Part shown: in pieces, positions 36,888 to 55,680 of the stretch
Position numbering within the stretch: the stretch's first letter is position 1
Layout: each line of letters starts with the position of its first letter
Assembly: GCF_024970185.1 (NCBI RefSeq)
Contig: NZ_CP103965.1
Span: forward strand, 4,398,001-4,462,000
DNA from: Pseudomonas sp. N3-W
Lineage (GTDB): Bacteria > Pseudomonadota > Gammaproteobacteria > Pseudomonadales > Pseudomonadaceae
Length of the DNA: 64,000 nt
Reading direction: 5' to 3'
Position numbers and translations under genes: made by a program
The notes under the pieces: model-generated
The model's input: the letters and a program-made list of their open reading frames with translations, nothing else
Told to the model about the DNA's origin: nothing
Database searches by the model: none

Positions 36888-36901
36888 TAGGACTTTTCCT
36901 A
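36888..36901. promoter_or_regulatory. BvgA-type operator upstream of the pseudo-receiver gene
   Basis: TAGGACT/TTTCCTA: 14 bp, one heptad exact and the other with two changes from TAGGAAA. It lies 72-85 bp upstream of the pseudo-receiver start. No second site at 21-22 bp was found. Confidence 0.55.
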
Positions 36902-36946
36902 AAAATAGGCTCTGATATCCGACGATTGCATTAACTCGACCTGTGC

Positions 36947-38152
36947 TCAGCACTCGATCCGCGCATCATCACGCCGCTGAAGCCAGTGCAATAAATCATC
37001 GCCACTCATTGGACGCGCATACCAGTAGCCCTGCCCCTGTGTGCACCCCAAGGCCAGTAATTGCTGGCGTTGCGCGTCGGTCTCGATGCCTTCGATCACC
37101 ACCGACATGCCCAGGGTTTCGCCCAGAGCCAGGGTGCTGCTGATCACGGCACGACAGCGCGGCTCGTGTTCCAGCGTGCGAACAAATTCGGCGTCGAGCT
37201 TGATCTCGTTAAACGGCAACTGACAAAGCCGTTGAAGGGAGGAAAAACCGGCACCGAAGTCATCGATGGATAACCGACAGCCCATCATGCGCAGGCGCAC
37301 AAGACTTTCGAGGCTGGTGGCCGGCGCTTCCAGCAGGCCGCTTTCGGTGAGTTCGAAGGTCAGGCTGGCGCCACGCGTAGCGTGACGGCTGAGGATGCTC
37401 TTGATGGTTGAAGCCAGCTCGCCGTTGGCCAACTGCGCCGCTTGCAGGTTAAACGCCATGTTCAGTGCAAAACCACGGCTTCTGGCCTGTTTCTGGAGGT
37501 TCAAGGCTTGATCCAACTGCCCGAACAACAACTCATCCATCAACCCGCAGCGCTCCAGCACCGGCATGAACTGCGCAGGTGAAACCACGCCCTTGAACGG
37601 GTGCAACCAGCGGCACAACACTTCTACGCCGCAGACCTCACCGGTCTGCAGGTTGAATTTGGGTTGATACCAGGCGTGCAACTGCTGCTCGGCCAACGCC
37701 CGACGCACCGCCCACTCACTGGCGAATTCAACCTGTGCGGCAGACCTTGGCCCGGCAGTCGGCCGGTTGACGTGATTTTCCAGCAAATGCTCCAGCACTG
37801 ATCCGTGCAGCGGCTTGCCAACATCACCGAGCAATTCCAGGCCCAGCAGCGATACCATTTGCTGCACCGCCCGTCGCAGATCGACCGACAGCGAACTGCT
37901 GATGATGATCGCCTTTACCTGCCCCGATGCACCGACGCGCTTGAGAAACTCCAGCCCGTCCATGCCTTCCATCTGCAAGTCGCAGAGGGCGATGTCCACC
38001 GCACCGACAGCGTCCAGCACCTCCAGCGCCTCGGCGCCATCACTGGCTTCGAACACCTCGCGGCAACCGAGCGTGCGCAGCATGTTGACCGCGACGGAGC
38101 GCTGGAAGTCATGGTCTTCGAGAACAAGGACGCGCAGTGGCAGGCAGGACAT
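36947..38152 (-). CDS. REC-EAL response regulator (RocR-like c-di-GMP phosphodiesterase), copy 1
   Basis: Protein of 401 aa: receiver (ED at 12-13, phospho-Asp58 in LCDLQMEGMDG, Lys in GDVGKP), then EAL domain. Catalytic pattern: EVL in place of EAL, FNLQAAQL (Asn), FELTES (Glu), DDFGAGFSSL, IKLD, EGIE and QGQGY. All metal- and substrate-binding residues known from RocR are present, so activity is expected. In P. aeruginosa RocR competes with RocA for the kinase and opposes it. Tandem TAGGAAA sites lie 63-97 bp upstream. Confidence 0.93.
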   Translation of the reverse strand: MSCLPLRVLVLEDHDFQRSVAVNMLRTLGCREVFEASDGAEALEVLDAVGAVDIALCDLQMEGMDGLEFLKRVGASGQVKAIIISSSLSVDLRRAVQQMVSLLGLELLGDVGKPLHGSVLEHLLENHVNRPTAGPRSAAQVEFASEWAVRRALAEQQLHAWYQPKFNLQTGEVCGVEVLCRWLHPFKGVVSPAQFMPVLERCGLMDELLFGQLDQALNLQKQARSRGFALNMAFNLQAAQLANGELASTIKSILSRHATRGASLTFELTESGLLEAPATSLESLVRLRMMGCRLSIDDFGAGFSSLQRLCQLPFNEIKLDAEFVRTLEHEPRCRAVISSTLALGETLGMSVVIEGIETDAQRQQLLALGCTQGQGYWYARPMSGDDLLHWLQRRDDARIEC

Positions 38153-38214
38153 GGGGTGTGACTCATCGGCTGCAAGGGTATGGCGATTGTTCAGGAAACC
38201 CAGGAAAATCTATC

Positions 38215-38249
38215 TAGGAAATGTCTGAGATTTTGTAGGAAACTTCCCA
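38215..38249. promoter_or_regulatory. Tandem BvgA-type operators upstream of REC-EAL copy 1
   Basis: TAGGAAATGTCTGA (38215-38228) and TAGGAAACTTCCCA (38236-38249), starts exactly 21 bp apart. Each has one perfect TAGGAAA heptad; the second arms are degenerate. Two further CAGGAAA half-sites lie at 38192 and 38201. Confidence 0.65.
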
Positions 38250-38393
38250 AAAATGCGCAGAAAGCTCTACAGATAGCGATCATCCAGGCTCATCCGCCAC
38301 GGCTGTTCGATGGCATTGCCTTGTCGCAGGCCGTGCCGTTGGTGCCGATCGCCGGATGGCCCTTTGTGGCAGACCGCCTTCAACTCGGTCGCG

Positions 38394-39038
38394 CTATAGC
38401 CTCACGGGCGTGGCGGCAACCGTGCTGAGGCAACGCCGGACGACCTTCTTCAACCCCTCGTTGTTTTTTGGCAATGAAAACGTTGCAGTCAACAGCTTGC
38501 CGCCGGCCTTGGGGGCCAGCAAAAGCTGCAGTGGCTGGCCACGCGAAGCGTCGCTCGCCCAGTAGGCCAATTCATCGCGGGGGATCGGCGCTTCAAACGA
38601 AAAGATCGTCCCCACCTGGAATACCCCGCCGTCAGTCCAGCTGCCTGAGACTTTGTGATCGACGGCGGTGCGTGTTCCGGTAGTGATTCGCATTGACCCC
38701 CGTGCACTGACGTCCGGACCTTCAAATGCCCCGCTGTTGAAACCCAGTGCCTGTGGGGCGATTTGCAGCCTGAATCCTGCCTCCGGGTTCTGCGGGTGAC
38801 AGCTGATCTCCAACGTGGCTTTGCTGTGATAACCGCTGTAAGCGCTGTCGCCGTAAGTGCTCGCCGTCAGCATGGGGCTCTCGGCATAGGGTTTCTCAAT
38901 CAACCACACGGGGTGCGCCGGACTGATAATCTGAATCCTGTCAGTTGACTCGTCACCTGCCTGTGCATGAGCGTCGAAATGTGAAAAACAAATGGCTGCG
39001 CACAAAGTAAAGGTGACGATTTTAATAGAGTGGATCAT
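38394..39038 (-). CDS. Exported hypothetical protein
   Basis: Protein of 214 aa with a clear signal peptide (about 1-26, ending HFDAHAQA) and no TM afterwards, so periplasmic or secreted. Two cysteines (in EISCHPQ and VRRCLST) may form a disulfide. I do not recognise the family. The start is uncertain: ATG 39038 gives the neatest signal peptide, but the frame has further ATGs at 39050 and 39077. It lies downstream of the adhesin accessory genes on the same strand, with a BvgA-type site about 100 bp upstream, so it may belong to the same regulon. Confidence 0.65.
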   Translation of the reverse strand: MIHSIKIVTFTLCAAICFSHFDAHAQAGDESTDRIQIISPAHPVWLIEKPYAESPMLTASTYGDSAYSGYHSKATLEISCHPQNPEAGFRLQIAPQALGFNSGAFEGPDVSARGSMRITTGTRTAVDHKVSGSWTDGGVFQVGTIFSFEAPIPRDELAYWASDASRGQPLQLLLAPKAGGKLLTATFSLPKNNEGLKKVVRRCLSTVAATPVRL

Positions 39039-39130
39039 TGAGGCATTCATCCAGAAGCTGGGTAAAGTTGCTGCCATTCATCTTGCGTTGCCAGTCATTG
39101 AAACAAACGACGCAATGTCCTCAATTCCTG

Positions 39131-39144
39131 TACGAAATTTCCCA
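39131..39144. promoter_or_regulatory. BvgA-type operator upstream of the exported protein gene
   Basis: TACGAAA/TTTCCCA, two changes from the palindrome TAGGAAATTTCCTA. A related ACGCAATGTCC lies 22 bp before it (39110-39120). It is 93-106 bp upstream of the start at 39038. Confidence 0.45.
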
Positions 39145-39218
39145 ATGAGTACCGCAAAACCGCTCGCCAGTATGAGCGACAGCTGCCTGGCCATCGGCAA
39201 GAACACCTGAATCAACCC

Positions 39219-39249
39219 ACACTCCCGCTGCGCGCAAAGAGTGTTTTTT
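39219..39249 (+). terminator. Rho-independent terminator-like hairpin, plus strand, no gene before it
   Basis: ACACTC (39219-39224) pairs with GAGTGT (39239-39244), followed by T-rich sequence. The T-run is on the plus strand, while the neighbouring genes are on the minus strand, so it does not end a known transcript. Confidence 0.4.
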
Positions 39250-39408
39250 CCAGAACGAGAACCTGCGGTGAGGACGTCTGTTGCCTGCCGAACCTTGAGG
39301 CTAGGGCGGTGGGTTGCGACAGTGGATGGTTCGACTGTGGGCAGGAAATTCTCCAGAGCCTTTTAGAGAAACTCCCGGCGCCTGTGCTGATATTCAGTGA
39401 GCGACGAA

Positions 39409-40462: not shown

Positions 40463-40524
40463 TTATCTCACCTTTTTCAGGAACAACCAGGCACCGAACT
40501 ATTTGCTGTCACGGACAGGGAGCG

Positions 40525-41400
40525 TCACGATTGCGGCGGTACCAGCAGCGCTTTGACCAACGGTGAAAAGTACGCCACCTGAAGCGGGTAATCCTGCCCC
40601 AGCAGTTTGCCTTGGCCATACCAGGTGATACCGCCCTGGTCCAGGATCAGGCCGTTGCTGCCAAACTCGAATACGCTGCCGATGGAACTGCTGAAGAGGA
40701 AGCGGCTGTCATCCATTTCCAGCAATTTGTACTGCGTGTCCGCGGCCGGCAGTTGATCCTTGATGCGTTGCAGGTAAGTCGGCGCCAGGCGGGCAAACAG
40801 CTGTTCGGCTCGCGCCCGGTATTGCGGTATCGACAAGCCGGGACTGCGTTGCAATTCGGCGGCGATCAGGGCGAACACATCGGCATTGGCCCGGGCTTCG
40901 GCAAGCTTGATCGACAGCGCCGAGGCCAATAGCGCGTTATCAACCTGCAGCGCGGATTTCTCCGGCTGCCCGTTGGCGGCCGGTGTGGTAACGGGGCGCA
41001 TGAACTCGGAGACATTGACTGTCGACAACACGGTCGTCGCCAGATAGGCCGCACAGGCCGTGGTCTGCCCTGCCTGGTCGCCATTGACCAATAGCGAGAA
41101 CGGGCTGCCCTCCTTGGGCACCGTTTGCGCCACGACGCCTTGCTGCTTGAGGAAGGCATTGACCTGCTCCTGTTTCACTTCGCCCCTGGCCAATGCACAG
41201 ATCTGCTCCATTGCCGGCGTATTGCGCTGCCCGTCGAATCTCGGCGAGAGTTCGAATACCGCATCATGAATCACCGGCAAAGCGGGAATGCTGAGCCAAT
41301 TGGTCTTGATGTCCGCGGATCTGTTGACCAGGAACTTGTCGTAACCGGCCAGCGCCAACAAAGTGATCAGGGTGGTGACGAAAATAGTTTTCATGTTCAT
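40525..41400 (-). CDS. Membrane-anchored hypothetical protein downstream of the adhesin
   Basis: Protein of 291 aa: one N-terminal hydrophobic segment (about 4-20, IFVTTLITLLALAGY), then a periplasmic domain rich in helices, with two cysteines (ICALA at about 68 and TACAAY at about 115). No family recognised. It starts 50 bp after the adhesin stop on the same strand, so it is probably in its operon, as accessory or quality-control protein for the autotransporter. ATG 41400 has AGG about 10 bp upstream; ATG 41394 is an alternative. Confidence 0.7.
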   Translation of the reverse strand: MNMKTIFVTTLITLLALAGYDKFLVNRSADIKTNWLSIPALPVIHDAVFELSPRFDGQRNTPAMEQICALARGEVKQEQVNAFLKQQGVVAQTVPKEGSPFSLLVNGDQAGQTTACAAYLATTVLSTVNVSEFMRPVTTPAANGQPEKSALQVDNALLASALSIKLAEARANADVFALIAAELQRSPGLSIPQYRARAEQLFARLAPTYLQRIKDQLPAADTQYKLLEMDDSRFLFSSSIGSVFEFGSNGLILDQGGITWYGQGKLLGQDYPLQVAYFSPLVKALLVPPQS

Positions 41401-41449: not shown

Positions 41450-44400
41450 TCACCACTGGTAACCCACCCCCACCGCCACCCCCACATTGCGCTGGGTATC
41501 GGTACTGCCCTGCAACTTGGTCAACCACCGCCCATTGCCGGACAAATGTGAAACACCAAAGGCAACGGACGATTGACCGCGATAGGTACTGGCGGCCGCC
41601 GTTGTCATGCTTGCACCCGGTGAATAAGACTGCGGCAGACTGGCCATTGCCATTGCACCGGCAATCCCCGCGCTGAGCGTTTCGTCCTGTTGCTTGAGGT
41701 CATTTTTCAGCTCCGCGTAACGCTGGTCGGTGTAGGCATTGGCGCTGTCAGTGATGCCCGCCACGCTCTTGGTCAATTGGTCGAAGTTCACCGCATCGGT
41801 GCCACTGGTGCCCGCCGCGACGTTGGTGATTTGCCGCTCGCTGCCCACGCTGCCCACCGATACGCTGTTGTCGCGATCAGCCACCGAATTGGTGCCCAGC
41901 GCCGTGGCGTTCTTGGCCGAGGCCTTGGCGCCGTTACCCACGGCGACCGAGTTTTCCCCGCTGGCTTGAGCCTGGGTGCCGACCGCCGCACTGTTATTGC
42001 CCGACGCCACAGCCCCTGCGCCACCGGCCAGCGAATTAACACCCGTGGCTTGCGGCTTGGCCGCCGCACTGCTGTTGTTCACCTGGAACATGCCGTCGGT
42101 GCCGTTCTTGATGTTGGAGACATCGCTCTCGACGGCGCTGATGCGGCCATCCTGTTGAACTGCCGTGCTGTCGAGGTTGGCAATCGATGTATCGGTGTAC
42201 TGCTTGGCCTCGGCGACCGCACCGTCGAGTTGCCGCACGTTGACCGCATCCGTGGCGTCCTTGCCGTCGGCAACATTGCTGATCGTGCGGGTTGCGCCGG
42301 TCGCCGCATCGCCCACCGACACCGTGCCCGAGGTCACGTTGTTCGCCCCCGAATACTGGCCGGTGTACGTCTCTGCCCCTCGACCGTCATCGCTGGCGCC
42401 GCTGCCCAGCGCGACACTGCCGTCAGCGCTGGCCTTGGCGCCATTGCCCACCGCCACCGAACTGCTACCCGATGCCACGGCCTGAGGACCCAGGGCCATC
42501 GCATTGCTGCCGGTGGCTGAGGAGTCGGCGCTGGTGGAGTTGACATGCAGGTACTTGATGCCGCCTCCCGAGCCGATCAGGTTCTCGAGGCCACCGACCC
42601 GTCCGTCGAGGTTGGTGATGTCTGTGGTGTTTTGATCCACTTGATCGCCGACCGACTTCAGTTGTGCGACGTTGACCGCGTCGTTGTCCTGGGTGCCTGC
42701 CGCCACCCCGGTGAGTTTGCGATTGCCCAGCGCCGTGCCGATGCCGACCTCGCCGACCGACGTCTGCGGTGCCGTCAATCGATAGGCGCTGTAATCCGTT
42801 TCGGCGCCGACGGTGGTTATCGAACTGGAGCCCAGCGCCACGCTCATGGCCTGACTCGCATTGGCACCGGCGCCCAGCGCCACCGATTGCTCAGCCGAGG
42901 CCTGGGCCGCGCTGCCCACGGCGATGCCGGAAGCCAGCAACACCTGGGTATTACGGCCGATGGCAATGCCACCGGCCGCAGCCTGACCGACAGTGGCCTG
43001 GTCACCGATACCGATACCGTTATCGCCGTTGACCACGGTGGCCGGGCCGACCGCAATCGACTCCGCACCCGTGGCAAGTGAGTCCACCGGGTTCGTCGAG
43101 TTGGCGTGGAAATAGAGGGTGCCGGTCGAACTCAAGGAGCCCATCGCCCCGGTCAATTGACGCAGCGTTACCGCGTCGTTGGCTTCGGTGCCATCCGCCA
43201 CGTTGGTGATCTGCCGGTAAGCACCGGCCTTGCCCACCGAAACCGACCCAAGCAAGGTCGCATCAGCGGTGTCATAGGTGATCGCCCCGCTACCGACCGG
43301 GATCGAGCCCGTGGCCGGTGCCAGGGCACGGTTCGCGACCGAACCTTCGCCCAGTGCGATACCGCCCGACACCAGCACCTGACTCTGATGCCCCAGCGCC
43401 AGACCTCCATCAGCGGACGCCGTGGCGCCCGTGCCTGCCGCGAACGAATTGGCGCCTGTGGCGACGGACAACGGCCCGATTGCAACGCTGTCCAGCCCGG
43501 ACGCGCTGCTGTCGGCCAGCGTCGAGTTGGCGTGGAAATACTTGATGCCGGTGCCGTTGTTGACGATGTTGTCGACCGCTTCGTTGGTCGCGAACAACTG
43601 GCTGCCGTTCACCGCGTCGGAGCTGGTGCTGCTCAGATCGCCAGCGGCCACGTTGCTCAGTTTCGTTGCCGCGCCACCTGGGTTGAACGTCACTTGCGTC
43701 CTGGTGGTGGCGTCGTCGTATTTCACCCCGACGGCGGCGATGTTGGTCAGGCCAGTGCTGAGGTTGCTCAGCGCATTGCCTACGTTGCTGCTGGTCAGCG
43801 GACCGGTGTCGGCCCCTGCCGCATTGATGCTGTTGGTCACATAGCTGGGCGCCGTCCACACGCCGGTGGTGGCGTCGAGTTGTGCACCACCGCCCAGGGC
43901 CTGCGCTGCATCCTGGCCGACCAGGTTGAGTTGGCTGACGTTCACCGCATCGGTGCTGTTGGAACCGGCAGCGAGGCCGGTCAGACGACGACCGTCTGCG
44001 CCGTTGGCGATGTTGACTTCGCCGCCCGTTGCCGCGCCGCCGATACCATAGGCTGCGTTGGTCAGGGTCGATCCTGTGGCCAGGGAGTTGCTACCCAGGG
44101 CCACGCTGTTGGCGGCGGTTGAACTGGCGGCCGGGCCGATGGCGACACTGTCCTGACCGGTTGCCGTGCTGTCAGCCAGCGTCGAATTGGCGTGGAAATA
44201 CTTGATGCCGGTGCCGTTGTTGACCAGGTTGTTGACTTGCGTGCCCAGCCCGTCGACGGCGGTGTTGGTTGAGAACAGCTGGCTGCCGTTGACTGCATCG
44301 GTACTGCTCGCGGAGACCCGACCGGCTGACACGTTAGTGATCTGCCGTTCGTTGCCAGCGCTGCCGACACTCAACACGCCGGTCGGTGCAGCACCGGCGT

Positions 44401-47400
44401 AATTGAAGGTGGCGCCATTGACCACGCCCGAGGCGGTCGCATTGGCGGTCGCCGTGGTGGCGCCGTTGCCCAGGGCGATGGAGTTGGAGGTGCCGGCGAC
44501 GGCACCGTTGCCGATGGCGACGGCATTCGTTGCGGTTGAGCTGGCGGCTGGGCCGACAGCCACGCTGTCCTGACCGGTCGCGGTGCTGTCGGCAAGGATA
44601 GAGTTGGCGTGGAAATATTTGATGCCCGCGCCGTTGTTGACCAGGTTGTTGACCTGAGTCCCCAGCCCATCGACGGCGGTGTTGGTTGAGAACAATTGGC
44701 TGCCGTTGACTGCATCGGTGCTGGTCGCCGATACCTGACCGGCTGCCACGTTAGTGATCTGCCGTTCATTGCCAGCGCCGCCGACACTCAACACGCCGGT
44801 CGGTGTTGCCCCGGCGTAATTGAAGGTGGCGCCATTGACCACGCCCGAGGCGGTCGCATTGGCGGTCGCCGTGGTGGCGCCGTTGCCCAGGGCGATGGAG
44901 TTGGCGGTGCCGGCGACGGCACCGTTGCCGATGGCGACGGCATTCGTTGCGGTCGAGCTGGCGGCTGGACCGACGGCCACGCTGTCCTGACCGGTCGCGG
45001 TGCTGTCGGCGAGGATAGAGTTGGCGTGGAAATACTTAATGCCCGCGCCGTTGTTGATGTTATTGACCGTCTGATTGGTCGCGAACAGCTGCGAACCATT
45101 TACCGCATCGGTGCTGGTGCCGTTCAAGGCACCGGCGCTCAGGTTGGTGATTTTCACCCCGCCAGCCGGTGCGCCTGCACCACCGGTCGCGCCCAGAGTG
45201 ATGGTGTTGCCGCCGACCGCATCATATTTCACCGCGATATTGGCGGTGTTGACCGTGTCGGTGTTCAGCGCCGACAACGCACCCGCTACGCTGGTTTGCG
45301 CCGTGGCCGCCCCTACCACCCCGGTGCTGCTGATCGCATTGATTGGCTGACTGAAACCCGTAACGCCCGTGGCCGACGAGTAAGTGGCGCCGCCACCCAG
45401 AGTGCTGGCCGAGGTGTTGCCTAACGTCGTGGCCTGGGTCCCCAGATTAGTGACCGCTGTATCGGTGGCAAAGAGTTGGCTGCCGTTGATTGCGTCGGTG
45501 CTGGTGGCCGTGACTTGGCCGGCCGCTACATTGGTGATCTGCCGTTCATTGCCAGCGCTGCCGACGCTCAATACGCCGGTCGGAACCGCACCGGCGTAAT
45601 TGAAGGTGGCGCCGTTGACCACGCCCGAGGCGGTCGCATTGGCGGCGGCGGTGGTGGCGCCATTGCCCAGGGCGACGGAGTTGGCGGTGCCAGCGATGGC
45701 GCCGTTACCGATGGCCACCGCATTCGCTGCGGTGGAACTGGCGGTGGGACCGACGGCCACGCTGTCCTGACCGGTCGCGGTGCTGTCGGCGAGGATAGAG
45801 TTGGCGTGGAAATACTTGATGCCCGCGCCGTTGTTGATGTTATTGACCGTCTGATTGGTCGCGAACAGCTGCGAGCCGTTCACCGCATCAGTGCTGGTGC
45901 CGTTCAAGGCACCGGCAGTCAGGTTGGTGATTTTCACCCCGCCAGCCGGTGCGCCTGCACCACCGGTTGCCCCCAGGGTGATGGTGTTGCCACCGACCGC
46001 ATCATATTTCACCGCGATATTGGCGGTGTTGACCGTGTCGGTGTTCAGCGCCGACAACGCACCCGCTACGCTGGTTTGCGCGGTGCCCGCCCCTACCACC
46101 CCGGTGCTGCTGATCGCATTGATCGGCTGACTGAAGCCAGTAATCCCCGTGGCCGACGAGTAAGTGGCGCCACCACCCAGAGTGCTGGCCGAGGTGTTGC
46201 CCAACGTCGTGGCCTGGGTCCCCAGATTAGTGACGGTAGTATTGGTGGCAAAGAGTTGGCTGCCGTTCACCGCATCAGTGCTGGTGCCGTTCAAGGCACC
46301 GGCACTCAGGTTGGTGATTTTCACCCCGCCGGCCGGTGCGCCCGCACCACCGGTTGCGCCCAGGGTGATGGTGTTGCCACCGACCGCATCATATTTCACC
46401 GCGATATTGGCGGTGTTGACCGTGTCGGTGTTCAGCGCCGACAACGCACCCGCTACGCTGGTTTGCGCCGTGGCCGCCCCTACCACCCCGGTGCTGCTGA
46501 TCGCATTGATTGGCTGACTGAAACCCGTAACGCCCGTGGCCGACGAGTAAGTCGCGCCACCACCCAGAGTGCTGGCCGAGGTGTTGCCCAACGTCGTGGC
46601 CTGGGTCCCCAGATTAGTGACGGTAGTATTGGTGGCAAAGAGTTGGCTGCCGTTCACCGCGTCGGTGCTGGTGCCGTTCAAGGCACCGGCAGTCAGGTTG
46701 GTGATTTTCACCCCGCCAGCCGGTGCGCCTGCACCACCCGTTGCACCCAGGGTGATGGTGTTGCCGCCGACCGCATCATATTTCACCGCGACGGCAGCGG
46801 TGTTGGTCACGCTGGTGCTGAGATTGGTCAGTGCCGCACCGACGTTACCGCTGACTAATGCCCCGGTGTTGGTGCCATTAACGCTGATGCTGTTGGTGGA
46901 ATAGCTCGGTGCCGTCCATGCACCGGTGGACGCATTGACTGCCGCGCCGCCGCCAAGGGCTGCCGCCGTGTTCTGGCTGGTTGTAAACAACTGGCTGCCA
47001 TTCACGGCATCGCTGCTGGTGGCGGTCAAGGCGCCGACCGCGATATTGGTCAACTTGACCGCGGTGCCCGCCGGGTTGAAGGTCACCTGGGTTTTGGTCG
47101 CGGCATTGTCGTATTTCACCGCCACAGCAGCGGTGTTGGTCAGGCTGGTATTGAGATTGGTCAGCGCTGCACCAACGTTGTTGCTGACTAATGGACCGGT
47201 GTTGGTACCGATAGCATTGATGCTGTTGGTGGAGTAACTGGGCGCCGTCCATACCCCTGTGGTCGAATTCAGCGCCGCGCCGCCACCTAGAGCAGTCACT
47301 GCGTTCTGGCCCATTTGATCGAGCTGACTGACGTTGACCGCATCCGTCGCGTTGGAGCCGGCGGCAAGGCCGGTAATCCGACGGCCATTGGTGCCGTTGG

Positions 47401-47950: not shown

Positions 47951-48161
47951 CAATGAATTGGCGTCGCGCCAACCTCCCGAACACGCGTCATCCATGGCGT
48001 GATGACTTCCGCTTTTCATTTAACCCTTGATATAAAAACACTGTTTACAAACGACACCGCGCCTATAAATCAACACGGATCAAATCTTCGTCTTACGTAA
48101 ACATGTCAATCACCAAGGAATTACCAGGCCGTATTATTTCAACTTGCCAAGTGGATTAAGT

Positions 48162-48196
48162 TAGGAAATTTCCTTCTATTTGTAGGAAATTTCCCA
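48162..48196. promoter_or_regulatory. Tandem BvgA-type operators upstream of the adhesin
   Basis: TAGGAAATTTCCTT (48162-48175) and TAGGAAATTTCCCA (48183-48196), starts exactly 21 bp apart. The first differs from the perfect palindrome at one base, the second at one base in the last arm. They lie 212-246 bp upstream of the ESPR start (143-177 bp from the ATG at 48019) and after the stop of REC-EAL copy 2. Confidence 0.75.
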
Positions 48197-48248: not shown

Positions 48249-49466
48249 TCAATCACTGACCGAACAACTAACAGCCGCCATTCGCTGAAGATCCAGCCAA
48301 TTCAACAATCCCGCCGCCGTCATCGGTCGCGCGCACAAGTACCCCTGCCCTTGGGTACACCCAAGTTCCAACAAGACTTGACGTTGCTCTTCGGTTTCGA
48401 TGCCTTCGACTACCACCGTCATGCCCAATGCTTCACCCAGCGCCAGGGTGCTTTTTATGACGGCGCGGCAACGCGGCTCTTGCTTGAGCCCGCGAACGAA
48501 TTCGGCGTCGAGTTTGATTTCGTTGAACGGCAACTGACACAGGCGCTGCAAGGATGAAAACCCCGCGCCAAAATCATCGATAGACAGGCTGCAACCCATC
48601 ATGCGCAAGCGCACCAGGCTTTCCAGACTGATTGCAGGCGCTTCGAGCAACCCCGTTTCGGTCAGTTCGAACGTCAGCCCTGAACCGGGCAGATCATAAT
48701 CACTCAATAGCGTTTTGATCCGGCATGTCAGTTGGGCATTGACCAGTTGCGCAGCCTGCAGATTGAAAGCGATGTTGAGCGCGAATCCCTGATCGAGTGC
48801 CTGACGCTGAAGCTTCAGCCCTTGCTCCAACTGAAGGAACAGCAAGTCATCCATCAACCCGCAGCGCTCGATAGTCGGTATGAACACTGAGGCTGGCAGT
48901 ACGCCTTTGGCAGGATGGTGCCAACGCGCCAAGGCTTCAATGCTGCACACATCACCGGTCAGCAGGTCGAATTTTGGTTGAAAGTAAGTCTGCAATTGCT
49001 GATCGGCGAGCGCCCGGCGCACCTCTTCTTCAGTCGCTGATCCAGCGACAGGAGCCACGGCCCGTTCATCAACAGGTTCGTTCATGTGTTTCGCCAGTAA
49101 TCGCTGCAGGGCACTGAATTGCAAGGGTTTGCCGACGTCGCCCAGTAGCACCATCCCTAACAGCGAAACCAACTGCCCCACCGCCCGACGCACATCTGCG
49201 GACAACGAACTGCTGATGATGATCGACCCCGCCAGCCGGGATCGGCCCACGGTTTGTAGAAGAGCCAGACTGTCCACACCCTCCATGCGCAGGTCGCACA
49301 AGGTGATATCCACCGCACCGACCTGTTCGAGAATCCCCAGAGCTTGCTGGCCATCGGCGGCAACAAAGACTTCCTGGCAGCCGGACTGCCAAAGCATGTT
49401 GACCGCAATCGAGCGATGGAAAGCGTTGTCGCCAATAACCAGAATACGTAATGGGAGCATATGCAT
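48249..49466 (-). CDS. REC-EAL response regulator (RocR-like), copy 2
   Basis: Protein of 405 aa, similar to copy 1 throughout. Receiver: Asp58 (LCDLRMEGVDS) and Lys present, but the acidic pair is reduced to Gly-Asp (12-13). EAL domain has EALARW, FNLQAAQL, FELTET, DDFGAGFSSL, IKLD, EGIE and QGQGY, all catalytic residues kept. It lies between kinase copy 2 and the adhesin, with its own tandem operators 61-95 bp upstream, shared with the divergent small protein gene. Phosphodiesterase activity is expected; how phosphorylation controls it is unclear. Confidence 0.93.
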   Translation of the reverse strand: MHMLPLRILVIGDNAFHRSIAVNMLWQSGCQEVFVAADGQQALGILEQVGAVDITLCDLRMEGVDSLALLQTVGRSRLAGSIIISSSLSADVRRAVGQLVSLLGMVLLGDVGKPLQFSALQRLLAKHMNEPVDERAVAPVAGSATEEEVRRALADQQLQTYFQPKFDLLTGDVCSIEALARWHHPAKGVLPASVFIPTIERCGLMDDLLFLQLEQGLKLQRQALDQGFALNIAFNLQAAQLVNAQLTCRIKTLLSDYDLPGSGLTFELTETGLLEAPAISLESLVRLRMMGCSLSIDDFGAGFSSLQRLCQLPFNEIKLDAEFVRGLKQEPRCRAVIKSTLALGEALGMTVVVEGIETEEQRQVLLELGCTQGQGYLCARPMTAAGLLNWLDLQRMAAVSCSVSD

Positions 49467-49526
49467 TGAAGCGGCTCACTCTAAAAGGAATGAGTCGATT
49501 GTCCGGACCTGACCGGTGGGTATCTC

Positions 49527-49561
49527 TAGGAAAATTCTCCCTGAATGTAGGAAATTTCCCA
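49527..49561. promoter_or_regulatory. Tandem BvgA-type operators upstream of REC-EAL copy 2
   Basis: TAGGAAAATTCTCC (49527-49540) and TAGGAAATTTCCCA (49548-49561), starts exactly 21 bp apart, 61-95 bp upstream of the ATG at 49466. Confidence 0.72.
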
Positions 49562-49615: not shown

Positions 49616-49629
49616 TGCGAAATTTCCTA
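49616..49629. promoter_or_regulatory. BvgA-type operator between REC-EAL copy 2 and the small protein
   Basis: TGCGAAA/TTTCCTA: right heptad exact, left with two changes. It lies 84-97 bp upstream of the plus-strand small protein gene, so the region has three sites serving both directions. Confidence 0.6.
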
Positions 49630-49712: not shown

Positions 49713-49910
49713 ATGACGAAAGAGCGAAAGCAACTACGGATATTACTCAGGCGACACGAAGACAATCTTGAGCTGCTGACCGCACATAGCGAATCCTGGC
49801 GAGGCGAAGATCGCGACAGAGGCGCCGCAACCCTGCAGAATCTGAAAGTGCAGATGGAACGATTGTTGAAACAATTGAACAAGCGCAAGGGACGCAAACT
49901 AACGGACTGA
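49713..49910 (+). CDS. Small basic coiled-coil protein, unknown function
   Basis: Protein of 65 aa, rich in Lys, Arg, Leu and Gln (RKQLRILLRRHEDN...NLKVQMERLLKQLNKRKG), predicted as one long amphipathic helix. AGGAA lies about 10 bp before ATG 49713. It is the only plus-strand gene in the 32-55 kb regulatory cluster, is divergent from REC-EAL copy 2 and has a TTTCCTA site upstream. No family recognised. It could act as a small partner of a kinase or regulator, but that is inference from position. Confidence 0.6.
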   Translation: MTKERKQLRILLRRHEDNLELLTAHSESWRGEDRDRGAATLQNLKVQMERLLKQLNKRKGRKLTD

Positions 49911-49985: not shown

Positions 49986-52900
49986 CTAGAGTGCGGGTTC
50001 ACCCATGCTCTGCTCCAGCGTCTGCGCCAATCGCTCCATTGCTTGCTGCAATGCGTCCACTGCCTCTGTCAACAAGACAGAGTCCGCCCCCATGCAGATG
50101 ACCTCCAACTGCTCGCAGCACTGGATCACGCTGCGCGCCTTGATGATTCGCGCGCCGCCCTTGAGCCGATGAGCCAGGTCGCTAAGGCCGGACAAGTCAT
50201 GCTCGCCGAACAGTTTGATCAGCCGCAACATGTCCTCTTCGTTACTGGTGGCCAGATCGCCGAGCAGTTTTCTGATCGCGGCGTGATCGCCACGCGTCAG
50301 TTGCTGCAAGCTATTGAGGTCGATGTCGCCTTCAACCTCGGGCGCCTTCGCGCCCAGCGGCAATGCCTGGATGCCGGGTTTGATCAAGGCCAGTCGGGCA
50401 CTCAGATCCACCAGGCTGATGGGTTTGAAGAGGCAATCGTTCATCCCTTCTGCCAGGCAACGCTCCTTTTCCTCCGGCTGGGCATTGGCAGTGAAACCGA
50501 GGATCAGGCACGGCTCGGCACCCGATGCCTTTTCTTCGTCACGAATGGCCCGCGTCAGCTCGTAGCCGTTCATGACAGGCATGTTGCAGTCGGTAATGAC
50601 CACATCGAAGTTGCCGTTGCGCCAGGCGCGCAGGCCATGGGCGCCGTCTTCAGCGTCGCAGACCCCGTGACCCAGGTAGGACAACTGCTGGGAGAGCAGC
50701 AAACGGTTGGCCGGGTAGTCGTCGATCACCAGGATGTTGAGCACACAGCCCTGAGACGCGGGCTCGACCGCTGGCAACTCGGCAACGGGCATGGGTGGCA
50801 AGATAACCAGATTGAGGCAGATATCGATCTGCGTGCCCTTGCCCGGCTCGCTGCTCAGGTTCAGTTCTCCCTGCATCATTTCACACAGCGTACGGCTGAT
50901 GACCAGGCCCAGTCCCGAACCACCCCGCGCCGACTGGTGATTATTGCTGGCCTGACCGAAAGGACTGAACAGTCGCTCCTGGTCAGTGGCGCAAATGCCG
51001 ATGCCGGAGTCCTTGACTTGCACATGAATCGCCAGGCGCTCGCCGCCTGCACCGAGCGCAGACTGCACGCTCAAACGCACCTCGCCTTCGTCGGTAAACT
51101 TGATCGCATTGCTCAGCAAGTTGGAAAGAATCTGTTTGAAGCGCAGCGGATCAATCAGGACATCGCGACAGGCCTTGAGGTCGAAATCCAGCAACAGTCG
51201 CAGGCCTTTTTGCCGAGCCACCCCTTCGAACATACGCACCACTGATTCGACCAGTTCACGCAAACTGGCCCGCTCCGGGGCCAGGGACAGGCGGCCGGAT
51301 TCGATGCGTGCGATATCGAGAATGTCGCCGATCAGGTCCAGCAGTCCCCGCGCCGCGCCAGAAGCGACTTCGATCGCGAACCGGTCCGTGACACCTTGGT
51401 CGGCCTTCTTCATGGCCAGTTCGAGCATGCCGATCACAGCGTTGATCGGGGTACGGATTTCATGGCTCATGGTTGCCAGAAAAGTGGTTTTCGCGCGGTT
51501 GGCTTCATCGGCGCTTTTCTTGGCATTCTGCAATTGTTCGAACAGAAGCTGTCGTTCGCTGATATCGATCCAGCCGGCAATGATCCCGGTCACCACGCCA
51601 TCGCTGGTGCGATACGGCAACATCCAGTGATACACCGTGTGGATCGTGCCGTTTCTGCGGGTGACGGCGCGGTCCTGTATCCATCGCGTACCGTCCGCCA
51701 TCACCTTCATGTAGGCGTCCTGACAGGCCACAGCGTCGGCATGACTGAGCACTGTGCTGTCGATAATCTGCTTGCCCATCACCGCCTCGCGCGCGACCCC
51801 GAGCACGTCAAGGTAGGCCGAATTACAACTCACCAGCCGGCCCTGGCGATCACGTACATAAATCGGGTGGGGCGTGCCGTCGATCAAGACGCGCATGAAC
51901 TCCATCTGGTCATTGAGCGCCCGCTCGGCCTTTTCGCGAGTGAGGACCAGCTGACGCAAATACACGATCCGCCATGCAGCGATGATCAGCAACAACGCGA
52001 AAAGGAGAAAACCCTGTATGACCGCTGAGCGATTGTGCTGCCAGTTGCCATTCTCGATCACCACGTCGTAATGCCAGCGGCCCGTCAGTTCATCCATTTC
52101 TTCTGGCGGAATGCTTTGCAGGGCTTTGTCCAGAATTGAATAAAGCTCCAGCGCCCCACGCTCAGTGGCAAAGGCGATCTGGGCCGACTGCAAACCGACG
52201 ATACCGGCCACGCGCAGGCGATCGCGGTATTCGCGCAGGATCAGGTAACGCCCGTTGATCAGCGAGTTGATGGCGCCGTCCGCCTTCCCCTTGTCCACCA
52301 ACGCCGTGGCATCGGCCGAAGACGTTGTCTCGATCAACTGTATGCCCGGGTATTTTGTGCTGATGAAATCATGCAGTGCATTGCCGCGTCTGAGCGCCAG
52401 CTTTTTGCCAACCATGTCCTCCAGTGTGTCTGGGCTATCCGACGCGTCCCGAGTGATCAGGACAAACGGGTTGGTCAGATAAGGCCGGGTAAACCGCAGC
52501 TCGTTTTCACGTTCAGCACTGGGGTTGAACGCCGCCAGCAGATCCGCATTGCCGCCCCTGACCTGTTCGATCAACTTGTCCATTGAATTGCCGCGCAGCA
52601 CATCGAATTTCAAACCGGTACGTTGGCTGATCTTGGCCAGCACCTCGGCACTGATGCCCCGGAACTCGCCCCGCTCATCGAAGAACGAGACGGGGGCCAG
52701 GCTATCGTTGACTGCCACTGTCAGACGCGGATGTTTTTCCAGCCAACGTTGTTCGGCGGCGGTAAAGCGAAGTGGGTGAAGGCCGGAAATGCTCATGTCA
52801 CCGGCACTCCAGCGCTGCAGAATCGTCATGCGATCCGTGATTGGAATCGCCGCCAGCGCGGTATTGACGATATTGAGCAGACGACGATTGTGCTGGTTCA

Positions 52901-53639
52901 TGGCGAAGGAGAAATGCGTGGTGTACACGCCTGGCAACTGCGTCAGGCGCACGTCATCCAGAAAGTGTTTATTGACCAGATAGTGGGTGCTGATGGCATC
53001 ACCCACATACGCATCCGCCTGACCAAACGCCACGGCACCGATCGCGCTCTGGGCCGAATCATAGAGCTGTATCTGAGCCTTGGGATAGGCCGAACTGAGG
53101 GCCTCCATCGGCTGATAATGGTCAAGTATGGCCAGTTGAATGCCGGGCAGGTCCGGTGTCAACACTTGCTCGGCGCCCCGGCGAGTTACCAGTTCTGACG
53201 GGGCTTTAGCATAGGCACTGCTGAGCACCAGTTCTGGATCCGCCGCATCGGCACTGTTGGCGGTGCCCACCAGATCCACCTCACCGAGCGCGAGTGCCTC
53301 TATCACCTCGGCTCGGGAGTCATAGCGACGCACTTCGACCTGAATGTGCAACATCGCGGCCAGTAGCTGCGCATAGTCAGCGGTGATGCCCTCGTAATCC
53401 TGCCCCCCATTGGTGACCATGTCGAAGGGTGCATGGTCTGGCGCCGATACGCCCAGGCGCAGTGAGTTTCTGCTGCGTAACCAGCGCCAGTCCGCCTCAT
53501 CCAGAAAGACTGAACTGCTTTCGCCATTCGAACGGCCGTACAGGTTTAGCGATTGCATTTCGGCATGGGCTGTCGAAAACATCCCCAACTGACTGAGCAA
53601 AAATGCTGCGAGTAGATAGCTGCGCACAGGGATTTCCAC
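49986..53639 (-). CDS. BvgS/RocS-like hybrid sensor histidine kinase with PAS, copy 2
   Basis: Protein of 1217 aa. Signal segment (about 5-25), two periplasmic Venus-flytrap domains (about 65-275 and 300-535), TM at about 545-565, a PAS domain (about 590-705, HPIYVRDRQGRLVSCN), HisKA with SHEIRTPINA (His726), HATPase with GSGLGLVISRTL, receiver (Asp1017, ITDCNMPVMNG) and Hpt (His1157, LAHRLKGG). It has the full Bordetella BvgS layout, including the PAS missing in copy 1. The GTG start abuts the TGA stop of the regulator gene. Confidence 0.94.
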   Translation of the reverse strand: MEIPVRSYLLAAFLLSQLGMFSTAHAEMQSLNLYGRSNGESSSVFLDEADWRWLRSRNSLRLGVSAPDHAPFDMVTNGGQDYEGITADYAQLLAAMLHIQVEVRRYDSRAEVIEALALGEVDLVGTANSADAADPELVLSSAYAKAPSELVTRRGAEQVLTPDLPGIQLAILDHYQPMEALSSAYPKAQIQLYDSAQSAIGAVAFGQADAYVGDAISTHYLVNKHFLDDVRLTQLPGVYTTHFSFAMNQHNRRLLNIVNTALAAIPITDRMTILQRWSAGDMSISGLHPLRFTAAEQRWLEKHPRLTVAVNDSLAPVSFFDERGEFRGISAEVLAKISQRTGLKFDVLRGNSMDKLIEQVRGGNADLLAAFNPSAERENELRFTRPYLTNPFVLITRDASDSPDTLEDMVGKKLALRRGNALHDFISTKYPGIQLIETTSSADATALVDKGKADGAINSLINGRYLILREYRDRLRVAGIVGLQSAQIAFATERGALELYSILDKALQSIPPEEMDELTGRWHYDVVIENGNWQHNRSAVIQGFLLFALLLIIAAWRIVYLRQLVLTREKAERALNDQMEFMRVLIDGTPHPIYVRDRQGRLVSCNSAYLDVLGVAREAVMGKQIIDSTVLSHADAVACQDAYMKVMADGTRWIQDRAVTRRNGTIHTVYHWMLPYRTSDGVVTGIIAGWIDISERQLLFEQLQNAKKSADEANRAKTTFLATMSHEIRTPINAVIGMLELAMKKADQGVTDRFAIEVASGAARGLLDLIGDILDIARIESGRLSLAPERASLRELVESVVRMFEGVARQKGLRLLLDFDLKACRDVLIDPLRFKQILSNLLSNAIKFTDEGEVRLSVQSALGAGGERLAIHVQVKDSGIGICATDQERLFSPFGQASNNHQSARGGSGLGLVISRTLCEMMQGELNLSSEPGKGTQIDICLNLVILPPMPVAELPAVEPASQGCVLNILVIDDYPANRLLLSQQLSYLGHGVCDAEDGAHGLRAWRNGNFDVVITDCNMPVMNGYELTRAIRDEEKASGAEPCLILGFTANAQPEEKERCLAEGMNDCLFKPISLVDLSARLALIKPGIQALPLGAKAPEVEGDIDLNSLQQLTRGDHAAIRKLLGDLATSNEEDMLRLIKLFGEHDLSGLSDLAHRLKGGARIIKARSVIQCCEQLEVICMGADSVLLTEAVDALQQAMERLAQTLEQSMGEPAL

Positions 53640-54266
53640 TCAGATCAAACTATTACGCTTGGCAAAATCGGCCAGGTACACCACCGACTTCACGTTGAGT
53701 TTTTCAATCAGGCGGGTCTTGTACGTACTGACAGTCTTGTTGCTCAACAACATGGCATCACCGATTTCCTTGTTACTCAAACCTCGGGCAAGTTGTTGCA
53801 GAATCGTCAGTTCACGATCGGAAAGGCCGCGGATCATCTCCAGCTCGGTGGAATCGATATCAATTCGGCGTACGGAATTGCCCGCCAGGTTTGGAAAGAA
53901 GGTATATCCAGCCATGAGTGCCTTGATCGCCTTGCTCAACTCACCCAATTCGTCGGTTTTCGATATATAACCGGCAGCGCCCGCCTTCATGCAGCGCATG
54001 GCATAAAAGGCCGCTGATTGAGAGGTCAATACCAGGATCTTGCTGGACAGCTTCAGCGCGCTGATCCGGCTGAGAACTTCCAGGCCGTCCAGGCTGGGCA
54101 TGGCAATGTCCAACAGGATAAGTTCCGGGTCATGCTTGCGAGCCAGTTGCACCGCATCGGCGCCATTATCAGCTTCGGCGACGACTTCGAATCGTTCATG
54201 TTCAAGCAGCAATTTCACCGTCGCCCGAATGAACGGATGATCATCTACAACCAACGCTCTATGCAT
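53640..54266 (-). CDS. BvgA-like NarL-family response regulator, copy 2
   Basis: Protein of 208 aa: DDHP at 8-11, phospho-Asp53 (ILLDIAMPSLDG), then the HTH (LSDRELTILQQLARGLSNKE, SNKTVSTYKTRLIEKLNV). The segments MAGYTFFP and SNKTVSTYKTRL match BvgA in my memory almost residue for residue, closer than copy 1. It should bind TTTCCTA-type heptads. ATG 54266 is at the receiver start. Confidence 0.94.
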   Translation of the reverse strand: MHRALVVDDHPFIRATVKLLLEHERFEVVAEADNGADAVQLARKHDPELILLDIAMPSLDGLEVLSRISALKLSSKILVLTSQSAAFYAMRCMKAGAAGYISKTDELGELSKAIKALMAGYTFFPNLAGNSVRRIDIDSTELEMIRGLSDRELTILQQLARGLSNKEIGDAMLLSNKTVSTYKTRLIEKLNVKSVVYLADFAKRNSLI

Positions 54267-54390
54267 TTGAACCTCTCTGTAAGACGCCCCGGGAAGGATC
54301 AAGCATCAAAAGACCGCGGAAAAAATCACCCTTTGGTGTGGCCAACATCACTGTGTCATCCGGCAGCCATATCGAAATACTTCAGACCTT

Positions 54391-55581
54391 CTAATCGGTG
54401 GATTCCGGGTTCTGTAGCCACTGCGTGAACCGTTGGGCATCCATCGGACGAGTCAGGTGAAATCCCTGGCCAAATGAACAACCCATTTCCACCAGCCCAT
54501 CGCGGATAAGCTGACTGCTGACACCCTCGATCACCAGGCTCATGTTCAGCGACCGGGCCAACGCCAGGGTGCAAGTGACCATCGCCCGGGTGTGCGGCTC
54601 GGCAATTGAGCGCACGAGTTGCCCGTCGAGCTTGAGTTGGTTGAACGGCAGCTGGGACAGCAATGTCAGCGAGGAAAAACCCATGCCGAAATCATCGATC
54701 GACAGGCTGCAGCCCATCATGCGCAGGCGCAGCAGGTTTTCCCGGGTCGCCCGAGGGACGTCGAGCAAGCCGTTTTCAGCGACTTCGAACAACAACGTCG
54801 ACCCTGGAAAATTGTGGCTCTTCAAGACGCTATAGATGTGGTCGGTCAGGTCATTGCGGGCCAGTTGCGAGGCGTGAAGGTTGAAAGCCAATTCCAGGCC
54901 CAGGCCAGACTGGCGCAAGGCACGCAACAGGCTCATGCCTTGCTCAAGCATTTGCTTGAGCATTTCATCGATCAGGTCGTAGGCCAGCACGGCAGCCAGA
55001 AAGTCCTTGGGCAACAGCAGCCCCCGAATCGGGTGCTCCCAACGCGCCAGCGCTTCAGCTCCGGCCAATGCAGCACTGTTCATATCGAACTTGGGCTGGA
55101 ACCAGGCTTTGAACTCCCCCCGATCCAGGCCACGACGAACGTCCTCTTCACTGGGCAGTCGATAAAGTGGTGACGGATCGGCTTGCGCCGGCAAGCGTCG
55201 GTGACAATAGCGCTGCAAGATATCTTGCAGCGTATAGAGCTGCGTGGGCTTGCTCAGGACACCCAGCAACTGCAACCCCGAAAAGCGCGTCATCTGTTCG
55301 ACGGCGCGACGCAACTCCGGGCGCAACTCACTGCACAGGGCGACCGCGCGGACCATGCCGCTGTGCCCGACACAATGCAGGAAGTCCAGGCAGTCGAGGG
55401 CGGTATTGCTCAGGTCGCAGAGCACGATGTCCACGCCCCCCTCCCGATCTATCTGTGCCATTGCCCCTTCGCTGTTATCCGCCTGCAAAATATCGCTGAC
55501 GCCCAAATGCTGCAGAGCCGTGACCAACACACCGCGCCGAAACGCGTGATTTTCTAAAACGAGAACGCTAGGGGATTCCAT
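54391..55581 (-). CDS. REC-EAL response regulator (RocR-like), copy 3 (diverged)
   Basis: Protein of 396 aa. Receiver has Asp56 (LCDLSNTALDC) and Lys (VLSKP), with Glu10-Asn11 instead of the acidic pair. EAL domain: EALARW, FNLHASQL, FEVAEN (Glu kept), DDFGMGFSSL, LKLD, EGVSS instead of EGIE, and FGQGF. The first Glu of EGV and the Gln are kept, so activity is possible, but the change to SS and the degraded receiver suggest altered control. ATG 55581 is preferred over TTG 55614. Confidence 0.9.
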   Translation of the reverse strand: MESPSVLVLENHAFRRGVLVTALQHLGVSDILQADNSEGAMAQIDREGGVDIVLCDLSNTALDCLDFLHCVGHSGMVRAVALCSELRPELRRAVEQMTRFSGLQLLGVLSKPTQLYTLQDILQRYCHRRLPAQADPSPLYRLPSEEDVRRGLDRGEFKAWFQPKFDMNSAALAGAEALARWEHPIRGLLLPKDFLAAVLAYDLIDEMLKQMLEQGMSLLRALRQSGLGLELAFNLHASQLARNDLTDHIYSVLKSHNFPGSTLLFEVAENGLLDVPRATRENLLRLRMMGCSLSIDDFGMGFSSLTLLSQLPFNQLKLDGQLVRSIAEPHTRAMVTCTLALARSLNMSLVIEGVSSQLIRDGLVEMGCSFGQGFHLTRPMDAQRFTQWLQNPESTD

Positions 55582-55666
55582 CTCGCCAATTACTCTGCAA
55601 AAGCGTGGAGTCAAAATTGTGGCTAACTCATGACACTGCCAACGAAGGATTTATCTCTCTGGCCTG

Positions 55667-55680
55667 TAGGAAATTTCCTA
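55667..55680. promoter_or_regulatory. Perfect BvgA-type palindrome upstream of REC-EAL copy 3
   Basis: TAGGAAATTTCCTA, a perfect 14-bp palindrome and the best site in the window, 86-99 bp upstream of the ATG at 55581. A weak partner (AAGGATTTATCTCT) starts 22 bp before it. Confidence 0.75.

What the first reader, a model, noticed from the sequence alone, without database searches (positions are those of the whole stretch)
36888..55680. Shared BvgA-type operator (TAGGAAA/TTTCCTA), often as two sites 21 bp apart
The inverted heptad, perfect at 55667-55680, occurs upstream of REC-EAL 1, 2 and 3, the adhesin, the pseudo-receiver and the small protein. Three of these promoters have two copies with starts exactly 21 bp apart (38215/38236, 48162/48183, 49527/49548). 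As I recall, BvgA binds inverted TTTCYTA heptads as dimers about 22 bp apart, and the HTH helices here are nearly BvgA's. This predicts a self-contained regulon.
Basis: partly seen in the sequence, partly recalled or inferred. Interest (0 to 1): 0.85.

Follow-up and report, generated by a model that had tools for sequence, protein, structure and literature searches.

The report
Shared BvgA-like switch for adhesion genes
A Pseudomonas carries a cluster of surface-adhesion and signalling genes whose promoters share one DNA docking site, almost letter for letter the site used by the whooping-cough regulator BvgA, so the cluster's own two regulators probably switch it on together.

Summary
TAGGAAA occurs 11 times in the window against 1.35 expected. 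The palindrome TAGGAAATTTCCTA with up to 2 mismatches occurs 24 times in the 6.67 Mb genome, 8 of them in this 18.8 kb. The exact 21-bp double heptad occurs three times in the genome, all here.

The operator recurs in relatives: 17 copies at 13/14 or better in 14 fresh loci, against 0 for each of 104 same-composition palindromes. It precedes rocR, rocR3 and cupC1 in a P. aeruginosa-like genome.

Sites 36888 and 55667 probably head the two regulator operons, so autoregulation is likely. And a -10-like hexamer lies 23 nt after the promoter-proximal site, so the -35 abuts the operator, as published for BvgA (fresh loci: p = 2e-4).

Best reading: a Roc-type, BvgAS-like regulon driving a trimeric autotransporter adhesin, three RocR-like phosphodiesterases and its own regulators. 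'Self-contained' is not proven: the genome has five RocA-like regulators. Binding was not tested. Only 21 of 80 related loci carry a 12/14 site. Two small-gene targets have no homologue in 105 loci.

The parts
36888..36901 (.). Operator TAGGACTTTTCCTA (12/14), 72 bp before the pseudo-receiver start; probably heads pREC-RR1-HK1
   Evidence: same 14-mer before pREC in L056, L059, L246
38215..38228 (.). Promoter-proximal weak operator of REC-EAL 1 (11/14), 21 bp from the distal site
38236..38249 (.). Promoter-distal stronger operator of REC-EAL 1 (12/14)
   Evidence: conserved in L056, L057, L059 with 21-bp partner
38186..38191 (-). Predicted -10 (AACAAT) of REC-EAL 1, 23 nt after the proximal operator
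39131..39144 (.). Operator TACGAAATTTCCCA (12/14) before a 227-aa ORF that has no homologue in 105 loci
48162..48175 (.). Promoter-proximal operator of the adhesin (13/14)
48183..48196 (.). Promoter-distal operator of the adhesin (13/14)
   Evidence: an adhesin relative in L061 has 14/14 and 13/14 sites upstream
48133..48138 (-). Predicted -10 (AATAAT) of the adhesin promoter
49527..49540 (.). Promoter-proximal weak operator of REC-EAL 2 (10/14)
49548..49561 (.). Promoter-distal operator of REC-EAL 2 (13/14)
49498..49503 (-). Predicted -10 (GACAAT) of REC-EAL 2
49616..49629 (.). Operator TGCGAAATTTCCTA (12/14), 97 bp before the small ORF
55667..55680 (.). Perfect operator TAGGAAATTTCCTA; probably heads EAL3-RR2-HK2
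   Evidence: site present before EAL3 in 4 of 7 relatives (L056, L057, L061, L065)
55645..55658 (.). Weak proximal operator of REC-EAL 3 (7/14), 22 bp from the perfect site
55616..55621 (-). Predicted -10 (CACAAT) of the REC-EAL 3 promoter
32399..35629 (-). HK1: BvgS/RocS-type hybrid kinase (2x SBP_bac_3, HisKA, HATPase_c, REC, Hpt)
35630..36358 (-). RR1: receiver plus LuxR-type HTH (probable start near 36250)
36397..36816 (-). Pseudo-receiver, 139 aa, corrected frame
36947..38152 (-). REC-EAL 1, RocR-like phosphodiesterase
38394..39077 (-). 227-aa ORF with no Pfam or NCBIfam match
41450..48019 (-). Trimeric autotransporter adhesin (ESPR, YadA head, stalk and anchor)
48249..49466 (-). REC-EAL 2, RocR-like phosphodiesterase
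49713..49910 (+). 65-aa ORF, no homologue in 105 loci
49986..53639 (-). HK2: BvgS/RocS-type hybrid kinase with PAS
53640..54302 (-). RR2: RocA/EvgA/BvgA-type response regulator (probable start near 54266)
54391..55614 (-). REC-EAL 3 (probable start 55581); receiver pocket altered, most checked EAL residues kept

Best explanation
The sites are operators for RocA/BvgA-like response regulators, most likely RR1 and RR2 of this locus. Each operator is a palindrome, TAGGAAATTTCCTA with weakly preferred TG before and CA after it, that binds one dimer of phosphorylated regulator. At the main promoters a strong distal site fills first, and a second, usually weaker site 21 or 22 bp nearer the gene takes a second dimer on the same DNA face. 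That second dimer abuts a poor -35 and helps RNA polymerase use a -10 lying 23 nt beyond it, as BvgA does at Pfha. The regulon is the adhesin, three RocR-like phosphodiesterases and the two regulator operons themselves (sites 36888 and 55667). It is therefore probably positively autoregulated, and it co-produces an adhesin with enzymes predicted to remove c-di-GMP. Shown by sequence: site density, conservation in a part of the relatives, spacing, -10 register and gene order. Inferred: operon structure, that RR1/RR2 bind, that phosphorylation matters, that binding activates, and the feedback.
For: Genome density: 8 of 24 sites in 18.8 kb, 3 of 3 exact double heptads. Relatives: in 80 named loci, 19 sites with up to 1 mismatch, against a mean of 0.31 over 105 same-composition palindromes (this one included; next best 7). 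Fresh loci: 17 sites at 13/14 or better in 14 loci against 0 for each of 104 others; 24 at 12/14 or better against at most 2. REC-EAL 1 promoter: flank identity 0.26, site 0.93, second site 0.76 over four species. RR-upstream 300 bp: 30 of 80 have 11/14 or better, mean 1.4 over 105 palindromes, next best 10. Spacing: of 16 second sites over all offsets, 7 at +21, 2 at -21, 2 at +22. -10: NANNAT at +23 in 13 of 25 promoters, at most 1 of 25 at any other offset; in 14 fresh loci the TATAAT match peaks at 23, p = 2e-4, the floor of 5000 draws. P. aeruginosa-like genome: 3 of 14 inspected sites (of 20) precede rocR, rocR3 and cupC1; the roc1 locus and cupC are in vitro targets of RocA1-3 (PMC12051241, section read). 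Genus: genomes with an RR2-like regulator hold 2.28 sites each (n=40) against 0.94 without (n=109), p = 1.6e-6. No terminator-like site in the two operon gaps.
Against: No binding or expression data exist for this strain. Only 21 of 80 RR-bearing loci carry a 12/14 site, and 9 of 16 EAL or adhesin promoters read in relatives have a site of 10/14 or better. The -10 rule fails at 12 of 25 promoters: pREC, SM65, L065 EAL3, L079 EAL1, L061 adhesin, cupC1, rocR3 and five of six RR-upstream promoters; the 25 were chosen as promoters with sites. NANNAT was framed after looking at window and some relative promoters. In the REC-EAL 3 comparison the site block scored only 0.61 against 0.25 for flanks, with one row mis-anchored by the script. 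In fresh loci +24 also rises (4 against 6 at +23, of 28 oriented pairs), and only 5 of 10 second sites are at 21 or 22 bp. EAL1 and EAL2 are 65% identical paralogues, so their paired sites may be one duplicated promoter. Outside the locus, 16 sites still exceed the control of 5.
Confidence: 0.8

Rival explanations
1. The operators are real RocA-type sites but are mainly read by one of the other RocA-like regulators of this genome (G000 positions 4257782, 4631841, 5281846), or by all of them, so the locus is one branch of a genome-wide cross-talking Roc network rather than a private regulon.
For: Five RocA-like regulators are present. One of the others has its own 12/14 site just upstream. In P. 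aeruginosa RocA1, RocA2 and RocA3 have highly similar motifs and overlapping in vitro targets (PMC12051241).
Against: Eight of 24 genome sites are packed in this locus. Genomes that keep an RR2-like regulator hold more sites, and sites lie beside it at orthologous promoters. Loci 4257782 and 5281846 show no 12/14 site within the 18 kb read.
Confidence: 0.35
2. The palindromes repress rather than activate, for example as autorepressor sites.
For: Response regulators of this class can repress (general knowledge); no expression data are available here.
Against: The -35 position abuts the proximal site and the -10 is at fixed distance, the published geometry for BvgA activation. RocA3 activates cupB and its own gene, and RocA1 activates lepBA and cupC (PMC12051241).
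Confidence: 0.12
3. The repeats are chance AT-rich spacer sequence or copies of a repeated element.
For: EAL1 and EAL2 promoters may share a duplication (65% protein identity). A few off-locus sites lie in open reading frames or are not conserved.
Against: Shuffles, reversed pattern and same-composition palindromes give far fewer. At REC-EAL 1 the flanks have diverged to random while the site is kept.
Confidence: 0.02

Closest known systems
BvgA operators and Pfha-type promoters of Bordetella
   Same: Inverted heptad; the primary site differs by one letter of 14 (TAAGAAATTTCCTA). Strong site upstream and further sites nearer the gene, the proximal dimer abutting the -35; poor -35 at Pptx. Adhesin genes among the targets.
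   Different: Spacing of 21 bp at three promoters here (22 at EAL3) against 22 bp. Two recognisable sites rather than the three dimers at Pfha. The -10 register is inferred from sequence only.
Roc system of Pseudomonas aeruginosa (RocS/RocA/RocR)
   Same: Hybrid kinase with SBP domains, LuxR-type regulator and REC-EAL RocR-like proteins in one cluster. A 12/14 match to the palindrome precedes rocR, rocR3 and cupC1 in a P. aeruginosa-like genome.
   Different: Two kinase-regulator pairs and three REC-EAL genes in one cluster. The surface target is a YadA-type trimeric autotransporter; no Cup gene was seen in the cluster.
EvgA of Escherichia coli
   Same: Best solved-structure match of RR2, with a nearly identical recognition helix. 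RR1 also scores best to the EvgA model.
   Different: Both regulators are below the NCBIfam EvgA cut-off, and RR2 scores slightly better to FimZ. EvgA's own DNA site was not compared.

Membership tests
BvgAS-type two-component system | Kinase with paired periplasmic SBP_bac_3 domains, then HisKA, HATPase, REC and Hpt | tested here: met
   HK1 and HK2; PAS found only in HK2
BvgAS-type two-component system | Regulator with receiver and LuxR-type HTH close to BvgA/EvgA | tested here: met
   (against EvgA; BvgA itself not compared)
BvgA-type operator | Inverted TTTCCTA heptads with no gap between them | tested here: met
   55667-55680 perfect; 13/14 match to the Pfha site
BvgA-type promoter | Dimer centres 22 bp apart | tested here: not met
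   21 bp at EAL1, EAL2 and adhesin; 22 bp at EAL3 only with a 7/14 second site. Relatives use 21 or 22. So 'works like', not 'is', a BvgA promoter
BvgA-type promoter | Proximal site directly next to a poor -35 | tested here: met
   -10-like hexamer at +23 in EAL1, EAL2, EAL3, adhesin and S227, 5 of 7 window promoters; peak at 23 in fresh loci. By sequence only
BvgA-type promoter | Phosphorylation-dependent binding and activation | not testable with these tools
   needs protein
Roc system | RocS, RocA and RocR homologues encoded together | tested here: met
   (43-46% identity of the three EAL proteins to RocR)
Roc system | Control of Cup fimbriae | tested here: inconclusive
   No Cup gene among the 16 cluster and nearby proteins scanned (one of them from outside the window); Cup operons elsewhere in this genome were not searched
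Roc system | Operator shared with RocA targets in P. aeruginosa | tested here: met
   12/14 site before rocR, rocR3 and cupC1 in G283; the published RocA logo (Figure S2A) was not seen

The most novel reading that the evidence does not exclude
There is a genus-wide RocA box and promoter rule: TGTAGGAAATTTCCTACA, a second box 21 or 22 bp nearer the gene, and a -10 exactly 23 nt beyond it. It is the BvgA rule almost unchanged between Bordetella and Pseudomonas. Roc regulons (Cup fimbriae, autotransporter adhesins, c-di-GMP phosphodiesterases and their own kinases) could then be read directly from a Pseudomonas genome. In this species the box wires an incoherent loop in which the adhesin and the enzymes that would dampen c-di-GMP-dependent adhesion are switched on together.
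Probability: 0.5. Interest if true: 0.65.

Novelty: new variant of a known kind. Interest (0 to 1): 0.55.

Why it matters
Roc systems control adhesion and biofilm genes in Pseudomonas aeruginosa, and the 2025 Roc paper leaves open how RocA proteins with similar motifs keep separate targets (section read). A conserved operator with a fixed -10 register gives a testable rule for calling Roc regulons from sequence and for asking that question. The near-identity with the BvgA site would make Bordetella promoter biochemistry transferable. The P. aeruginosa RocA motif has been derived before from DAP-seq (PMC12051241), so the operator is not new in kind. The shared promoter geometry and the adhesin-phosphodiesterase cluster are the new parts, as far as the searches could show (open-licence papers only).

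Tried and rejected
Extra target: the only other perfect site in the genome (G000 81112, between a coxB-like and a PA0104-like gene; names recalled) is 68 bp before an ATG. Of 25 homologues of that gene whose upstream regions I read (27 were found), none had 13/14 or better and one (L208) had 12/14, at another place; a 96% identical neighbour has 10/14. Set aside as chance or strain-specific. Sites 5880523 and 6648233 lie inside open reading frames.

Direct-repeat reading (TTTCCTA every 21 bp without palindromes): the proximal sites do keep the gene-side heptad better, but the distal sites are near-full palindromes, so dimers are preferred.

Breadth outside Pseudomonas: RR2-like proteins (E up to 1e-48) were found in 1 of 369 class-level genomes, the window's own, so Bordetella could not be compared. 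BvgA was not aligned. EvgA's site was sought in papers without result. In the main text of PMC8041468 RocA1, PA4080 and PA3045 were not found, although the listing counted RocA1 twice; in PMC13086498 RocA and four locus tags were not found. In PMC3083521 the words BvgA and binding site occur only in the references.

Rows dropped: 6 of 24 further loci as near-copies. Four of the 18 kept (L174, L178, L181, L183) had been read for sites, so repeats the test on the other 14. The 20 regions were picked from the 46 hits for contig length, not for sites. In the P. aeruginosa-like genome I read 14 of the 20 sites with up to 2 mismatches. Confidence was lowered slightly for that.
Full report
Observation. 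The heptad TAGGAAA occurs 11 times in the 64 kb window against a shuffle mean of 1.35. The palindrome with up to 3 mismatches occurs 10 times against 0.41. Over the whole 6.67 Mb genome the palindrome with up to 2 mismatches occurs 24 times (reversed control 5), and 8 of these lie in the 18.8 kb of the finding. The exact heptad pair at 21 bp occurs three times in the genome, all here (with up to 2 mismatches 23 matches against 10 for the control).

The locus. It holds two kinase-regulator pairs. HK1 and HK2 are hybrid kinases with paired SBP_bac_3 domains and REC-Hpt tails; RR1 and RR2 are receiver plus LuxR-type HTH. EAL1 best matches RocR of P. aeruginosa among solved structures (PDB 3SY8, E 6e-104), and the three REC-EAL proteins are 43-46% identical to it. 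All three keep RocR E175, N233, E265, E268, D295, D296, K316, E352 and Q372; EAL3 has S at 355 (positions chosen from recall). The 2189-aa protein is a trimeric autotransporter with ESPR, YadA head, stalk and anchor. RR2's recognition helix is nearly that of EvgA. I call this a Roc-type cluster.

Which operons. On the minus strand the order is pREC-RR1-HK1 behind site 36888, and EAL3-RR2-HK2 behind site 55667. No terminator-like signal was found in either internal gap, but the gaps are over 100 bp, so the operons are inferred, and one relative (L057) has an 11/14 site in the EAL3-RR2 gap. The pseudo-receiver frame was corrected to 36397-36816. It has a match in 24 of 105 loci, and among the five closest, four keep a 12-13/14 site 85-88 nt upstream.

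Conservation. In 80 named Pseudomonas loci found by their RR2-like regulator, the palindrome with up to 1 mismatch occurs 19 times. The mean over the 105 palindromes of the same half-site composition (this one included) is 0.31, next best 7. Sites sit at orthologous places before EAL3, EAL1, the adhesin and pREC, but not everywhere: 21 of 80 loci have a 12/14 site, and 9 of 16 EAL or adhesin promoters read have a site of 10/14 or better. At REC-EAL 1 (four species) flanks match at 0.26 (random), the site at 0.93 and the second site at 0.76; at REC-EAL 3 (five species, one row mis-anchored) the figures are 0.25, 0.61 and 0.49. Thirty of 80 regulators have an 11/14 or better site in the 300 bp upstream, against a mean of 1.4 over 105 palindromes, next best 10. 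As a fresh test I took 24 further loci and dropped 6 near-copies; 4 of the remaining 18 had already been read for sites. In the other 14 there are 17 sites at 13/14 or better, against 0 for each of 104 control palindromes, and 24 at 12/14 or better, against at most 2; 11 of the 14 loci have one. In 149 genus genomes the degenerate pattern is commoner where an RR2-like regulator is present (2.28 against 0.94 per genome); the reversed control totals 17 against 193.

Known Roc targets. In a P. aeruginosa-like genome (RocR 97% identical to the PDB chain) the palindrome with up to 2 mismatches occurs 20 times. I read 14 of these places. Three lie 102 bp before rocR (in the rocA1-rocR spacer), 81 bp before rocR3 and 136 bp before cupC1. 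The roc1 locus and cupC are in vitro targets of RocA1-3 (PMC12051241, sections read). Four further genomes with a RocR-like gene beside Cup-like fimbrial genes were read: a 12-14/14 site lies before the first pilin gene in L174, L178 and L181, and in or next to the rocA-rocR spacer in L174, L178 and L183. Gene names here are assigned by resemblance.

Promoter architecture. Around 43 anchors in relatives, second sites (10/14 or better) fall at +21 seven times, -21 twice and +22 twice, out of 16 over all offsets. After the promoter-proximal site, the pattern NANNAT (the three key letters of a -10) occurs at exactly +23 in 13 of 25 promoters and at most once at every other offset from 0 to 44. 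This leaves room for a 6-nt -35 touching the operator and a 17-nt spacer. I framed that pattern after seeing window and some relative promoters, and the 25 were chosen as promoters that have sites. In the 14 fresh loci, with both orientations of every pair counted, the pattern peaks at +23 (6 of 28 oriented pairs; +24 has 4, others at most 2), and the match to TATAAT is highest at 23 (p = 2e-4 against random offsets, the floor of 5000 draws; 18 loci: p = 4e-4). Misses are listed under evidence against. BvgA at Pfha binds a strong upstream inverted heptad and further sites every 22 bp, the last abutting the -35, and a poor -35 is needed for regulation at Pptx (PMC7250471, passages and introduction). 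The published primary site TAAGAAATTTCCTA differs by one letter from the window's.

Mechanism. A phosphorylated RocA-type dimer takes the distal palindrome; a second takes the proximal one 21 or 22 bp away on the same face and contacts polymerase at the abutting -35. Adhesin, phosphodiesterases and both regulator operons then rise together. In P. aeruginosa RocR counteracts cup expression, probably through c-di-GMP (PMC12051241, passages), so the co-induced EAL proteins may limit adhesion; this is inference.

Limits. There are no binding data. Five RocA-like regulators exist, and one outside the locus has its own site, so a private regulon is not shown. The 65-aa and 227-aa target ORFs have no homologue in 105 loci, which cover only about 10 kb each side of a regulator. 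BvgA itself was not aligned. The RocA logo is in print as a supplementary figure that I did not see. The letters GGAAATTTCC together with Pseudomonas were found in 5 papers, 4 listed, none on this subject by title. The species of the window was not identified.

Noticed in passing
36363-36378: Inverted repeat CTGTCAG-AA-CTGACAG in the gap between the pseudo-receiver and RR1; a similar ACTGTCA word shows upstream of RR1 in some relatives. Could be an attenuator or a second operator.
   Followed up: no
54391-55581: REC-EAL 3 has an altered receiver pocket (N and V at two RocR Asp positions) but keeps most checked EAL residues; its receiver is not recognised by Pfam.
   Followed up: partly
L187:9113-9126 (genome 81112-81125): A perfect operator between a cytochrome oxidase gene and a 216-aa unknown gene, absent from the same spacer in 25 relatives.
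   Followed up: yes
L056-L135: A different palindrome of the same letters, GGAAATATATTTCC, occurs 7 times with up to 1 mismatch in the 80 loci, far above the other controls; unexplained.
   Followed up: no
40525-41400: A 291-aa protein behind the adhesin has one relative among 105 loci, in L175, another locus with RocA-like regulators; perhaps an adhesin helper.
   Followed up: no
L009:1501-1514 (genome 758581): TAGGTCATTTCCTA lies about 90 bp before a gene that looks like a VgrG (recalled resemblance); not tested for conservation.
   Followed up: no
L184:8741-8754 (genome 4631740): A third RocA-like regulator of this genome has a 12/14 operator just before it, with a receiver-like gene and kinase-like genes around it, a possible cross-talk partner.
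   Followed up: partly
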